DNA from: Calditrichota bacterium
GTDB taxonomy: Bacteria > Calditrichota > Calditrichia > RBG-13-44-9 > J042
Reading direction: 5' to 3'
Length of the DNA: 45,494 nucleotides
Assembly (NCBI GenBank): GCA_003696445.1
Contig: RFHE01000177.1
Span: 1 to 45,494 of the forward strand
Shown here: positions 2,127 to 9,407 of the stretch, piece after piece
Position numbering within the stretch: the stretch's first letter is position 1
Layout: the number at the start of each line of letters is the position of its first letter
The notes under the pieces: generated by a model
What the model saw: only the letters and a program-made list of their open reading frames with translations
Told to the model about the DNA's origin: nothing
Databases searched by the model: none
Made by a program: the position numbers and the translations under genes

Positions 2127-3770
2127 TTACAGGTTCGCGCTCAGGGCAACCTGCCAGCGATCCAGTTGGATCAGATCGCTGCCCAGAAATGCATCCAGCC
2201 GAAACCGCTTCCAGCGAAAGCCCAGGCCGGCCATGGCCTCGCGGTCAATCGCCCGGGTACTGGAGCGATTTTCGATCTCACGCCTGGAGGGCAAATCGCC
2301 CAGCCTTCTGGAATGCTGGTCAGTATCCCGCCAGTGCCATACCACTCCCAGGCGGGCCTGAATGGGACCCACTTCGCCCTCCAGCGCAACCGGCAAATTC
2401 AAAGCGGTCTCGCGCGTACGATCCAGGGCAGGAATTTCATCCATTACATCCAGTTGGTCGGTCACCGAATCCCTGACCGTAACCTGGTGATCTTCGAAAG
2501 CCAGTGGCGCGCTGATTTTGGTTCGCACATAGCTCAGCTGCAGCCCAGCCAGAATACGGGCCCGCCGATGAACGGGAATTACCTGCCCCACGCCGCCCCG
2601 GAAAGCCACAAGGGTATTGCTCCCGTTTGCGGATTGCTGGCTTGTTTCTTCCATGCGGAAATTAAAACTTCCCGAGCCGGTTTGCTTCCTCACATCCTGG
2701 AGGGCATCATCCTGCATTTCTCTACTCTTGAAGCGGGCGATACGGGCAAACAAATGGAGGCGGGTCAAACCGCGCCAGCCCTCCACCCCACCTTCCCAGG
2801 CATACAACCGGTACACACCGGGTCCGAGCGTCCGATGGTCAAATTGGCTGGTATTGGTGAATGGATTGGGAGGATTGGAATACACATTACGCTCGAACAT
2901 GGAGACTTCGTTATTGATCCAAAAGCGGCTTCGATAGTATTTCCAGCGCAATTGCGGCAAAATATCCCATTTGCCTGCAGAAATGCGGGCACCAAGCGCC
3001 AGCTCGTGCCCCCGCCATGGCTGCCCGCTACCGGAACTGCTGAAATTTTTTACCTCCCGATCCAGGCCCGATCCGCTGGAGCTGAATGTCTCACGAAGCT
3101 GAAACTCATTCTGGCTTTTTCGCTGCAAATAATAAAACCGGTAACTGAAGGCCACCTGTACATTCGACCGGTTGAGCACGCCCAGCCAAAGCTGTGCGCT
3201 GAACTCATCGCTTACCGCCAGTTTCTGGCTCGTGCTTTCCCGGTTGTTCTGCCCTCCCGAATTGGAAAAGGCTAGATTATCGCTGAGCGAACTGCTCTGC
3301 TTGTCGGTGATTCCTCGAAAAAAAACCCCGGCCGAAAGGCCTTTGCCAAAGAGGCGACTACTCCAGTAACCCAGCGACAGTACCGGCCCCCGGGTGAGCG
3401 TTCCTCCGGCTGCAGCCGGGGCAACCAGCTCACCCCCGGATTCATCGCTACCAGTCCCGGTAATTCTTTGAAATGGTAAAATTTCAGGTTCCGGGCGGGG
3501 CGCATAATCCACCACCACCCTGTCCCCAGAAATCTGAAACAGTGCCGCGGGGTGGACAAACAGATCGGTCAGGGTATCCTGCACCAGACCGGCAAAGCCG
3601 GCCCCCAGCGCCCGCATCCGCACTGACAAATAGGGAATCTCGCTTACTGGGAAAACAATGCTACTTCCGCTAATTAAAGCATTTACTCGATGCTCGAAAT
3701 GCTGAGCCAGTACAGGCGTGTACAAAGCACTGCAGAGGACCACAAACACGATTGGCCGGTGGGCTTTCAT
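2127..3770 (-). CDS. Outer membrane beta-barrel protein, PorV/FadL-like N-terminal motif
   Basis: Start taken at MKAHRPIVFVVLCSALYTPVLAQ (signal peptide). ALGAGFAGLVQDTLTDLFVHPAALF resembles 'ALG.G.A..D...L..NPA' motifs. Alternating beta-strand-like sequence. Confidence 0.7.
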   Translation of the reverse strand: MKAHRPIVFVVLCSALYTPVLAQHFEHRVNALISGSSIVFPVSEIPYLSVRMRALGAGFAGLVQDTLTDLFVHPAALFQISGDRVVVDYAPRPEPEILPFQRITGTGSDESGGELVAPAAAGGTLTRGPVLSLGYWSSRLFGKGLSAGVFFRGITDKQSSSLSDNLAFSNSGGQNNRESTSQKLAVSDEFSAQLWLGVLNRSNVQVAFSYRFYYLQRKSQNEFQLRETFSSSGSGLDREVKNFSSSGSGQPWRGHELALGARISAGKWDILPQLRWKYYRSRFWINNEVSMFERNVYSNPPNPFTNTSQFDHRTLGPGVYRLYAWEGGVEGWRGLTRLHLFARIARFKSREMQDDALQDVRKQTGSGSFNFRMEETSQQSANGSNTLVAFRGGVGQVIPVHRRARILAGLQLSYVRTKISAPLAFEDHQVTVRDSVTDQLDVMDEIPALDRTRETALNLPVALEGEVGPIQARLGVVWHWRDTDQHSRRLGDLPSRREIENRSSTRAIDREAMAGLGFRWKRFRLDAFLGSDLIQLDRWQVALSANL

Positions 3771-5222: not shown

Positions 5223-5999
5223 TCAGGGTACACTGGCAACCAATTCTGCAACCCCCGGCCAGCCGGAGGGATAAGCGCCCCACAACAGAAGTACAATCAT
5301 GCCAATGGCCAGGAAGGGCACAAAAGGAATGCTTGCCTGTACTCGGGGATTTCGCAAAAAAGCAGGCAACAAGCCAGCCACCCCGGCAAGTAAAAAGCCG
5401 ATTAAAATAGCGAACAGTATGGCAGTGGGTCCTAAAAAAATCCCGGCGGCGGCAGCCAACTGGATATCACCGAAACCAACCAGTGATTCTCTTCCCAGAA
5501 GTTTACTGAGAAGGACCACCAGGGCCAGAACGGACCCCCCCATTGCAGCCCCAAGGCATACCATGGACCACGGCTGAACCTGCAGCAGCAAATTGGCAGC
5601 CAGCCCGGAAACAAGCATCAGCACAATCAGGCGGTTTGGGATCAACTGCAATTCAGCATCAATCAAACTGATTGTGATTAAAAAACAACAAAAGAGGCCG
5701 TAAAAGAAAAACGGCCCGGTAAATCCGAACCGCCCATAGAGGGCCAGACCGGACAAGGCGGTGCTTAATTCGATAATCGGGTAGCGCACCGAAATGGGAA
5801 AATGACAGTAAAAGCAACGGCCTTTTAGAAACATATAGGAAATCAGTGGAATTTTAAAGTAGGGGGCCAGGTACATATGGCAGCTTGGACAGAAAGATCC
5901 AGTTCGAAACAGTGCAATGTGCCGGGGCAGTCGATAAGCACATTTTCCAAGAAATTCCCCAATCAGGAGCCCGAGAAAAAAAACCACCGTCCAGTTCAT
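5223..5999 (-). CDS. Prepilin peptidase / type IV leader peptidase (A24 family)
   Basis: CPSC...CFYC pairs, ISLIDAELQLIPNRL (first catalytic Asp) and VGFGDIQL (GxGD), multiple TM segments. ORF can extend to an alternative GTG start at 6005. Confidence 0.92.
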   Translation of the reverse strand: MNWTVVFFLGLLIGEFLGKCAYRLPRHIALFRTGSFCPSCHMYLAPYFKIPLISYMFLKGRCFYCHFPISVRYPIIELSTALSGLALYGRFGFTGPFFFYGLFCCFLITISLIDAELQLIPNRLIVLMLVSGLAANLLLQVQPWSMVCLGAAMGGSVLALVVLLSKLLGRESLVGFGDIQLAAAAGIFLGPTAILFAILIGFLLAGVAGLLPAFLRNPRVQASIPFVPFLAIGMIVLLLWGAYPSGWPGVAELVASVP

Positions 6000-6086
6000 C
6001 GCCACGGTTCCGTAAATTTTGTACTCGCTTATTGCCGTTCCGTTTTTTTTTATCGGCTTAAATTGGCCTCGAGGTCAGGAGAAAAA

Positions 6087-7805
6087 TTATTTCACACTAC
6101 CGGCAAGCACCTGTGCTGTTCGAGCCGGAGAAAGGGATGTGGGGCTTACATCGGACGGGGAGATGCCCAGTTGGCCAAAGAGTTGTTGCACAGCCTGCCA
6201 GTCGGTAACTCCGCGCCGGATCAATGCCCAGGCATTCTCCTGAAACGAAATCCGGTGAGCGCTGCCATTCACAATGTCCTCCACCGAGGCTTGCTGGTGC
6301 AATGCTTTTCTCAATTCCGGCGATGCCGGTAAAAATTCCTGAATAAGCACCCATCCAGCATACCCGGTAAAACCACAGGCTGGACACCCCACGGCGCCCC
6401 CGGAGAGTTCTGCCCCGCCGGTTGGTACCAGCCCTGCCCTCGGTAAAGCCACCGGGCGGCAACGAGTACAGAGTGCAGGTAATTTGTGCACGGCTACTGC
6501 GGCACTGAATACTGCAGCCAGATCTTGCGGGGCCACCTTCTGTTGCAGGTGCTCCAGGGCAGAAAAAACAGTGGGTTTTTCCAGAACCAGCACAACCAGG
6601 CGTCGCCGGGCTTCCTGAACAGCGAGGGCAATAGCCGCTTTCTCCCCCGCCGGTTCCAAAACAACGACCTCCGGCTCCAGGCTTAGAAAACTGCGCAATA
6701 AAGCCCCTGGACCAGGCTCATGTCCTGTTTGCCAGCGCAATTTGACCACGCCCGGAATCCAGGGGGAAACTTGCCGTTCGATGATTAGCAGCCTCTTCCC
6801 CTCCATTTTCAGCATTTCCAGTTCAAGGTTGAGCCGACCTCGCACCGGGGACTCCAGCCTACCGGAGAGGAGAACAAGTCCGTTATTCTTCCGTAAAAGT
6901 TCGGGAATGTATTTGAAATTGGGATGCTCAGCCGGGCGTGGCGTTTCTTTCCCCTCTTGCAGGTGTTCCACCCACTGGAGGCTTAACTCAAACCGATGTG
7001 CATTTTTTTTCCACCGAAGCCGTGCACCAAACTCTGCCTGGTGGGCTGGTAAAACCAGTGTGGCATTGTTCTTTTCTTCCACCATTTCCCACCGGCACCC
7101 ACCCAATTTGAATAGCTGCCTGAGCAGCGACGGCCAAAGAATGGAGGGAACGGCGAAATGTTCTTTTTCCCAATGCTCGGTTTCCAACTCCAACCTAACC
7201 GCATTGCCTGGCAGGTAAAAAGCATGGAGGAGCCCCCTTCGCTCGGCAACCCGGGCCAGAAGCAAGCGAACAAAGCTATCTACCAGATTGCTCCCCTCGG
7301 ATGGCAACGCTCCTTGGGCATTCAGGTAATCCCGAAGCCATCCCAGAGCCTGGGAGAGCCTGCGCCAGGTGTGTGCGACCTCCCGCTGGACTCCAAACAT
7401 CCAGCGAACTTCCATACCGCACCGCCATTCCAGCCAGCGCTCCTGCTCGCCAGTCAGGGGTAAAGCAGCTACGACATTCAGAGGCGGTGTCTGCCCTATT
7501 AGCGTCAAAATTTGCCAGGCCTGCAGCCGGTTTGCCCCCAGGGCAAAAATCTGCTCAATATCGGGTTGACAAACGCTGGGATTTCTCCCACAAATTCCCA
7601 ACCGGCGCCACACCAGGCGGTAAAGTTGTTCTGCGGTCAATATGCCCCGGGCCAATAACAGGTTTTGGAGAAACACAGGCTCTTGCTCAAGTGGTGCAAG
7701 CAATTGTTTCAGTTGACGGGAGGAGAGGATCTCGTTTTTTAGCAAGAGGGGAATCAGCCAACCATCGGCCACCCGCGGTGCAGTGTTGCGATCTTCCTTG
7801 TTCAT
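6087..7805 (-). CDS. GspE/PilB-family protein with degenerate nucleotide-binding motifs (predicted pseudo-ATPase)
   Basis: Start taken at MNKEDR (SD GGAAGGGG; downstream of the predicted sigma54 TSS). MshEN/T2SSE_N-like N-terminus (LLLARGILTAEQLYRLVWRRLGI). NNGLVLLSGRLESPVR occupies the Walker A position. Zn-site CTRC...CPACGFTGYAGW retained. Confidence 0.8.
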   Translation of the reverse strand: MNKEDRNTAPRVADGWLIPLLLKNEILSSRQLKQLLAPLEQEPVFLQNLLLARGILTAEQLYRLVWRRLGICGRNPSVCQPDIEQIFALGANRLQAWQILTLIGQTPPLNVVAALPLTGEQERWLEWRCGMEVRWMFGVQREVAHTWRRLSQALGWLRDYLNAQGALPSEGSNLVDSFVRLLLARVAERRGLLHAFYLPGNAVRLELETEHWEKEHFAVPSILWPSLLRQLFKLGGCRWEMVEEKNNATLVLPAHQAEFGARLRWKKNAHRFELSLQWVEHLQEGKETPRPAEHPNFKYIPELLRKNNGLVLLSGRLESPVRGRLNLELEMLKMEGKRLLIIERQVSPWIPGVVKLRWQTGHEPGPGALLRSFLSLEPEVVVLEPAGEKAAIALAVQEARRRLVVLVLEKPTVFSALEHLQQKVAPQDLAAVFSAAVAVHKLPALCTRCRPVALPRAGLVPTGGAELSGGAVGCPACGFTGYAGWVLIQEFLPASPELRKALHQQASVEDIVNGSAHRISFQENAWALIRRGVTDWQAVQQLFGQLGISPSDVSPTSLSPARTAQVLAGSVK

Positions 7806-7994: not shown

Positions 7995-9407
7995 TTAGCG
8001 AGCCTTTTTATACAACCGGACGGCAAAGGAGCCATCCATCTTATGGCGATGGGGAAAAGTGCGAACAAAGCATTTGCTCCACAGGTACTGAGCCGGCAGT
8101 TCCCCGCTAAGCTCCTCGGAAACAAATTCGGGATGGGTTTCCAGAAACTGCTGAACCACCTGTTCGTTTTCTTGAGGGTCGATGGTACAGGTGCTGTAAA
8201 CCAGCCGTCCGCCTGGTTTCAGGAGTTGGGCAGCGCAATCCAGCAGGCGCAGTTGGAGCTGACTCATGTTTTCAATGTCCTGCTGGCTCCGTTTCCACTT
8301 TAAATCCACTCGTTTTTGCAGCACGCCCAGTCCACTGCAGGGGGCATCCAGAAGGATGCGGTCGAAACGAAGGGTGGTTGGGCAAGCCAACGCATCGGCG
8401 CATACGGTAGTGGCACAGTCCACCCCAAAACGGCGCAAATTGTCGGCCAGCATTTTCGCCCGATGCAGGTGCCTTTCCAAAGTAACCAGCCGTCCTTTAT
8501 TGTTCATTAATTCGGCAATGTAGTTGGATTTCCCGCCGGGAGCCGCACACATATCCAGAATAGTCTCCCCCGGCCTTGGCTGTAGGAGTCGAACCGGAAT
8601 TCCGGTGCTGACATCCTGAATGGAAATCCACCCCTTACGCATTAAATCCAATTTGCGAAACTCGCTAAAATTGTCGATGGCCAGGAATTCGGGGAAATCT
8701 GGATGGATCTGATATTGAATGCTGTTTTCTTCCAGAATTTTAAAAACAACTTCCCGGTTAGCCTGAAGGGAATTGATACGGCCGTAAATACGGGGCCGCT
8801 GATTGTTGGCTTCGCACAGTTTCATCGCCTCATCAATGCCCCAAAACTCCACCCAGCGTTGCAACAACCAGAAAGGATGGGAATAGCGGACCGCTACCCG
8901 TTCCAGGTAAGGTAATTCGATTTCGGCCAGTTCCAGCCGCCGGGCCTGCCGCAAGTAATTGCGTAAAATGGCATTAACCAGGTTGGCTGTTTTTTGATTA
9001 AACCGCTTCTTGGCAATTTCCACCGCCTCGTTTAAAACCGCGTAGGGGGGGATGCGATCCAGGTACATTAACTGGTAAAGCGAGGCGCGAAGATTGTTTT
9101 TTACCTCGGGAATGAGATCTTCGTAACTGCCCACATAAAGCTGCTGAAGGTACCAGTCCAACCGATAGCGCCAGCGGAGGGTGCCATTGACCACTTCGGT
9201 AATCAGGGCACGATCCACCTCGTTAAACTCCTCCACCTCTCTCTCCAGTAAACGATCGGTATAGGCCTGTTGCGTATCCACACGGGTCAGAATTTCCACA
9301 ATTTTTGCCCGAGCATTAATCTGGGATTCCGGCTGGCTGCTTTTAGCCCGCCCTCCATTACCCGAGCCACTGGGTACAGCGGAGGCTTGTTCTTCCCGAT
9401 AGTCCAT
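7995..9407 (-). CDS. rsmB: 16S rRNA (cytosine-C5)-methyltransferase, NusB + RsmB/Sun domains
   Basis: N-terminal NusB-like region, DMCAAPGGKSNYIAELM, DAPCSGLGVLQKRVDLKW, YSTCTIDPQENEQVV. Confidence 0.93.
   Translation of the reverse strand: MDYREEQASAVPSGSGNGGRAKSSQPESQINARAKIVEILTRVDTQQAYTDRLLEREVEEFNEVDRALITEVVNGTLRWRYRLDWYLQQLYVGSYEDLIPEVKNNLRASLYQLMYLDRIPPYAVLNEAVEIAKKRFNQKTANLVNAILRNYLRQARRLELAEIELPYLERVAVRYSHPFWLLQRWVEFWGIDEAMKLCEANNQRPRIYGRINSLQANREVVFKILEENSIQYQIHPDFPEFLAIDNFSEFRKLDLMRKGWISIQDVSTGIPVRLLQPRPGETILDMCAAPGGKSNYIAELMNNKGRLVTLERHLHRAKMLADNLRRFGVDCATTVCADALACPTTLRFDRILLDAPCSGLGVLQKRVDLKWKRSQQDIENMSQLQLRLLDCAAQLLKPGGRLVYSTCTIDPQENEQVVQQFLETHPEFVSEELSGELPAQYLWSKCFVRTFPHRHKMDGSFAVRLYKKAR

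What the first reader, a model, noticed from the sequence alone, without database searches (positions are those of the whole stretch)
6087..7805. GspE/PilB-family protein that has lost all nucleotide-handling motifs but stays intact (candidate pseudo-ATPase)
Seen: the position of the canonical GLILVTGPTGSGKTTT Walker A reads GLVLLSGRLESPVRGR (6840-6863), with no GxGK[ST]. The Asp-box (normally IITIEDPVE) reads LLIIERQVS. The Walker B stretch (normally DPDIIMVGEIRD) reads EPEVVVLEPAGEK (about 6639-6677). The His-box (normally GHLVLSTLHTN) reads RRLVVLVLEKP. The Zn-binding tail CTRC...CPACGFTGYAG (6375-6470) and MshEN-like N-terminus are recognisable, and the ORF is uninterrupted over more than 570 codons. 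Established: secretion ATPases of this family need Walker A/B, Asp and His boxes. Inference: a scaffold or regulatory protein derived from PilB/GspE, possibly replacing or modulating an active ATPase. I do not know of this being described for such a locus.
Basis: partly seen in the sequence, partly recalled or inferred. Interest (0 to 1): 0.78.

Follow-up and report, generated by a model that had tools for sequence, protein, structure and literature searches.

The report
Motif-less PilB in collapsed pilus operon
A bacterium of the phylum Calditrichota has lost most of one of its pilus machines but still keeps an intact gene for the machine's motor protein in which every ATP-handling motif has gone, which suggests a dead motor kept for its shape rather than its power.

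Summary
It is the ortholog of the Calditrichota pilus motor "PilB-REC": same rsmB>pilB>pilD order as a same-order relative, end-to-end alignment, and a 100/100 tree fork with that PilB group. Same-family relatives have canonical PilB and the complete operon. Here the locus has shrunk to pilB*-pilD-pilM*; its PilC, pilins and PilT were not found in the 89%-complete assembly. It is the only degenerate PilB among 40 genomes of the phylum. Neutral decay is unlikely: simulations to the same divergence leave 0/60 open frames, and fold-level similarity exceeds an "open frame only" null. Best reading: a pseudo-ATPase kept for its fold, probably docking with PilM* as a nucleotide-independent scaffold or signalling remnant. 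That function is inferred; the structure model was too poor to help.

The parts
6087..7805 (-). pilB*: PilB-derived pseudo-ATPase, 572 aa
   Evidence: T2SSE 36.4 bits; hhalign 99.1% to canonical PilB; tree 100/100 with T4P-1 PilB
7371..7805 (-). N-terminal (N1-like) domain of pilB*, residues 1-145
   Evidence: Best matches are PilB of same-family relatives, E 2e-8
6936..7280 (-). N2 domain of pilB*, residues 176-290; conserved ASDIHIEP stretch lost
   Evidence: 4 of 49 invariant columns kept
6834..6863 (-). Walker A position: GRLESPVRGR in place of GPTGSGKTTT
   Evidence: Alignment
6762..6791 (-). Asp box position: LLIIERQVSP in place of ILTIEDPIEY
   Evidence: Alignment
6639..6680 (-). Walker B position: LEPEVVVLEPAGEK in place of QDPDVILVGEIRDR
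   Evidence: Alignment
6573..6605 (-). His box position: RRLVVLVLEKP in place of GHLVLSTLHTN
   Evidence: Alignment
6354..6470 (-). Zn tetracysteine module CTRC...CPAC plus TGYAG, kept
   Evidence: All 8 key positions kept; open-frame simulations keep 1.7 on average, 4 at most
5223..6005 (-). pilD: prepilin peptidase (A24), both catalytic Asp kept; only A24 hit in the genome
4044..5198 (-). pilM*: PilM-like, lacks the membrane and PilN part of the relatives' PilM-N fusion; phosphate-2 Asp lost
   Evidence: hhalign 96.6% to relatives' PilM part; alignment; no Pfam PilM hit
7995..9407 (-). rsmB: upstream gene that anchors synteny with G007
   Evidence: 62.5% identity to the gene upstream of canonical pilB in G007

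Best explanation
The gene is the ortholog of the type IV pilus extension motor PilB of this Calditrichota lineage. In this genome its operon has collapsed from the full set (B-D-C-pilins-MN-O-P-Q, with T in the family) to three genes: pilB*, pilD, pilM*. PilB* has lost the residues for ATP binding and hydrolysis but is held under some selection for its fold, above all its Zn module and hydrophobic core. Shown: orthology, motif loss, operon collapse, and constraint on the reading frame and fold. Inferred: because PilB normally docks in the PilM socket (GspE on GspL in type II secretion), and because both surviving cytoplasmic proteins lost nucleotide-site residues and their receiver or membrane extensions, PilB* and PilM* most likely form a soluble, nucleotide-independent docking complex. 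It would act as scaffold or signal, as apo-PilB is proposed to do in Myxococcus EPS control, and would not drive a filament.
For: Synteny and homology. Motif loss. Loss of the rest of the machine: one PilC, one secretin, both of system 2; no N_methyl pilin; no PilT. Uniqueness in the phylum. Intact frame against neutral simulation. Similarity at changed sites -0.56 vs -0.83 +/- 0.07, polarity class kept 66% vs 58 +/- 2%, 4 of 4 Cys vs mean 1.0, against an open-frame-only null with re-alignment. PilM* keeps the PilM body without the PilN part. PilB docks in PilM (PMC11656802); a Walker A mutant of PilB signals without pili (PMC5544727).
Against: No close ortholog, so no dN/dS; a single genome. 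Codon preference of pilB* (0.034) and pilM* (0.065) is below other window genes (0.15 +/- 0.035), as expected of relaxed constraint or low expression. Structure model unusable (pLDDT 40). PilB*-PilM* contact and any signalling role are untested. MAG 89% complete, so absent genes could lie in the gaps, although the locus itself is contiguous.
Confidence: 0.6

Rival explanations
1. Relic in decay: after the pilus was lost, pilB* and pilM* drift, with only stop codons selected against because open frames protect expression of pilD in the middle of the operon.
For: Operon collapse; extreme branch length of 10 against a median of 0.41; weak codon preference; most invariant sites lost.
Against: An open-frame-only null does not reach the observed similarity and polarity pattern, and reaches 4 of 4 Cys at best rarely. 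pilM* lies downstream of pilD, so polarity would not protect it.
Confidence: 0.22
2. Regulator of the second pilus system: PilB* binds PilB2 or PilMN2 (C271, C256) and inhibits or tunes it, and PilD processes its pilin-like proteins.
For: System 2 is present with a canonical PilB2; the only A24 peptidase of the genome is in this operon.
Against: System 2 occurs in other Calditrichota without any A24 peptidase or degenerate PilB. PilB* is closer to T4P-1 PilB than to PilB2 (66).
Confidence: 0.12
3. Sequencing or assembly error hiding a normal PilB.
For: The genome is a MAG in 404 contigs.
Against: Each lost motif is replaced in frame with flanking homology on both sides. No P-loop is readable at that position in another frame. 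Divergence is spread over the whole protein; synteny is clean.
Confidence: 0.02

Closest known systems
PilB, type IVa pilus assembly ATPase (TIGR02538 / PF00437 T2SSE); solved: Geobacter PilB 5ZFR/5TSH, Thermus PilF 5OIU
   Same: Order of domains, end-to-end homology, Zn tetracysteine module, gene position before pilD
   Different: No Walker A, Walker B, Asp or His box; N2 nucleotide-contact stretch lost; no C-terminal receiver domain (present in relatives); 45.5 bits against an equivalog cut-off of 675.65
Myxococcus xanthus PilB Walker A mutant (K327A) as nucleotide-free signal for EPS (PMC5544727)
   Same: PilB without usable Walker A; proposed to act by conformation, independently of filament assembly
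   Different: A laboratory point mutant in a complete pilus system, not an evolved protein without the machine
GspE-GspL (4PHT) and PilB-PilM cytoplasmic pairs
   Same: Homologous partner pair encoded in the same remnant operon
   Different: Contact not tested here; both partners divergent; PilM* lacks the PilN and membrane part

Membership tests
PF00437 T2SSE (secretion ATPase superfamily, by descent) | Profile score above the curated cut-off | tested here: met
   36.4 bits, cut-off 24.9
PilB (TIGR02538) active motor | Equivalog score | tested here: not met
   45.5 bits against 675.65
PilB (TIGR02538) active motor | Walker A, Walker B, Asp and His boxes | tested here: not met
   All four replaced
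PilB (TIGR02538) active motor | Zn tetracysteine module | tested here: met
   C446, C449, C474, C477 and TGYxG kept
PilB (TIGR02538) active motor | Partner PilC and pilins of the same system | tested here: not met
   Only the system-2 PilC; no N_methyl hit in the 89%-complete genome
MshEN / GSPII-B c-di-GMP binding domain | Model score above cut-off | tested here: not met
   14.5 bits, cut-off 38
Pseudo-ATPase (fold kept, catalysis lost) | Catalytic motifs absent in a homologous protein | tested here: met
Pseudo-ATPase (fold kept, catalysis lost) | Selection on the protein | tested here: met
   Simulations; no dN/dS available
Pseudo-ATPase (fold kept, catalysis lost) | Fold kept in three dimensions | tested here: inconclusive
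   AlphaFold2 pLDDT 40; Foldseek hits GspE/PilB with TM about 0.2
Pseudo-ATPase (fold kept, catalysis lost) | No ATP binding or hydrolysis | not testable with these tools
   Needs purified protein
PilM (pilM* gene) | Homology to PilM and its nucleotide motifs | tested here: inconclusive
   hhalign 96.6% to the PilM part of relatives, but no Pfam hit and phosphate-2 Asp lost

The most novel reading that the evidence does not exclude
A type IV pilus base reduced to three proteins (dead motor PilB*, soluble PilM*, peptidase PilD) has been repurposed as a filament-free signalling or scaffolding device: a natural, evolved counterpart of the apo-PilB signalling state proposed from Myxococcus mutants.
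Probability: 0.35. Interest if true: 0.75.

Novelty: new variant of a known kind. Interest (0 to 1): 0.52.

Why it matters
PilB/GspE motors are treated as defined by ATP hydrolysis. A natural ortholog that lost every nucleotide motif yet stays under selection would show that the motor body has a separable function, and it gives a natural case in which to test the proposal that nucleotide-free PilB acts as a signal. It also warns that family searches will annotate such a protein as a secretion ATPase.

Tried and rejected
Frameshift or assembly error: rejected, motifs are replaced in frame; a P-loop-like string in another frame (GCAGSGKT, starting at 6597) lies elsewhere and no Walker B was found with it. 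Close orthologs for dN/dS: none found in the 84,980-genome collection or among the 40 phylum genomes. Membership of the downstream barrel-like gene (2127-3770): not linked, found in only one other genome. PilD kept to serve the second pilus system: not obviously needed there, since G005, G008, G014 and G015 have that system and no A24 hit. AlphaFold2 with 3-4 rows: too poor to use. Literature: searches found no report of a natural PilB/GspE lacking all nucleotide motifs; subscription journals are not covered. Promoter and terminator scans gave no more than chance.

Full report
Check of the observation. The ORF at 6087-7805 on the minus strand reads 572 codons without a stop, from an ATG at 7805 preceded by AGGGAAGGGG. 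Pfam finds T2SSE over residues 297-539 at 36.4 bits (cut-off 24.9), and the PilB equivalog model gives 45.5 bits against a cut-off of 675.65. Aligned to canonical relatives, the four catalytic boxes are replaced in frame: GPTGSGKTTT by GRLESPVRGR, ILTIEDPIEY by LLIIERQVSP, DPDVILVGEIRD by EPEVVVLEPAGE, GHLVLSTLHTN by RRLVVLVLEKP. The N2-domain stretch ASDIHIEP is lost too. The tetracysteine module and TGYxG are kept.

What it is. The genome is a MAG of 3.3 Mb in 404 contigs, 89% complete. In same-order genome G007 the order is rsmB > pilB (770 aa, canonical, with receiver domain) > pilD at the end of a contig; a second contig of G007 begins with the rest of a pilD gene and goes on with pilC, pilins, a pilM-N fusion, pilO, pilP and pilQ. 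In same-family G002 and G003 the operon is complete on one contig (pilB, pilD, pilC, pilins, pilM-N, pilO, pilP, pilQ, pilT); in G001 it lies on two. In the window the order is rsmB (62.5% identical to that of G007) > pilB* > pilD > pilM* and then an unrelated gene. PilB* aligns with the canonical protein end to end (hhalign probability 99.1%). Its N-terminal 150 residues match significantly only PilBs of this operon, best those of the same family (E 2e-8), and a tree puts it with that group at 100/100, on an end branch of 10 changes per site against a median of 0.41 (its exact place inside the group is unsure because of the long branch). It is therefore the ortholog of the lineage's T4P-1 motor. 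The gene names in relatives other than pilB, pilD, pilM and the pilins were given from position, length and sequence, not from a separate profile scan.

The machine around it has shrunk. The genome has one other long T2SSE protein, canonical, on C271 beside its own PilC; another contig, C256, carries a PilM-N-like fusion, a PilO-like protein and a secretin. These look like a second, distinct system split over two contigs. No second PilC, no N_methyl pilin (three or four hits in each of the three family relatives) and no PilT was found. The assembly is incomplete, but the T4P-1 locus itself is contiguous and lacks these genes. PilM* matches only the PilM half of the relatives' fusion, without the membrane and PilN part, and has lost the conserved Asp of the second phosphate motif. 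PilD keeps both catalytic aspartates but shows GEFLGK in place of GSFLNV. System 2 occurs without any A24 peptidase hit in G005, G008, G014 and G015, so serving system 2 does not obviously explain why pilD is kept.

How unusual. In the 40 held genomes of the phylum every other substantial T2SSE match scores above 90 bits; the rest are short fragments at 25 bits or less. This one, at 37.6 bits over 238 profile positions, is the single outlier. No close homolog was found in the 84,980-genome collection.

Is it just decaying? Identity to relatives is 16-20%, where pairs among the nine relatives share 47-86%. Evolving a relative's gene neutrally to 20% identity leaves a mean of 21 stops and 0 of 60 frames intact. 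A stricter null, in which only stops are forbidden, was simulated and re-aligned. Observed similarity at changed sites (-0.56 vs -0.83 +/- 0.07, max -0.65) and polarity class kept (66% vs 58 +/- 2%, max 63%) lie beyond all 60 simulations; conserved Cys kept (4 of 4 vs mean 1.0) equals the maximum. So there is selection on the protein. It looks weak or partial: codon preference is low in pilB* and pilM* and most invariant sites are gone. The simulations use simple substitution models without indels.

Mechanism. Shown: orthology, loss of the motor residues, collapse of the operon, residual constraint. Established elsewhere: PilB docks in a socket formed by PilM (PMC11656802); in Myxococcus a Walker A mutant of PilB that binds ATP poorly still signals EPS production without pili, and the apo form is proposed as the signalling state (PMC5544727); GspE binds GspL (4PHT, listed). 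Inferred: PilB* and PilM*, the two surviving cytoplasmic partners, form a nucleotide-independent complex used as scaffold or signal. I give about 0.9 to 'orthologous PilB-derived protein without motor function', about 0.75 to 'kept by selection on the protein' and about 0.4 to the PilB*-PilM* docking mechanism; the overall confidence of 0.6 reflects the mix. The AlphaFold models are too poor to weigh (pLDDT 40 and 45); Foldseek on the first returns GspE/PilB chains but with TM about 0.2.

Novelty. Searches of the open literature found no natural PilB/GspE lacking all nucleotide motifs, with the limit that subscription journals are not held. It is a new variant of a known kind: a pseudo-ATPase within the PilB family.

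Noticed in passing
G000:C271:9225-15004 (L073) and G000:C256:6-3903 (L082): A second type IV pilus-like system (PilC2, canonical PilB2, short proteins with hydrophobic N-termini; PilM-N-like fusion, PilO-like protein, secretin). Other Calditrichota with its PilB2 (G005, G008, G014, G015) have no A24 prepilin peptidase hit, so it may work without one.
   Followed up: partly
L067:11131-13299, L068:11113-13278, L069:1846-4017, L070:6282-8594: The canonical T4P-1 PilB of relatives carries a C-terminal response-regulator receiver domain, an unusual fusion that pilB* has lost.
   Followed up: partly
L067:4898-6700, L068:4899-6701, L071:4239-6041: PilM and PilN are fused into one 600-aa protein in these relatives.
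   Followed up: partly
window 5223-6005 (-): PilD reads GEFLGK where relatives read GSFLNV in the N-terminal domain, while both catalytic aspartates are kept.
   Followed up: no
window 2127-3770 (-): A 547-aa protein with a signal-like N-terminus and no family hit above cut-off, homologous to only one protein among 40 genomes of the phylum (G015, 24% identity).
   Followed up: partly
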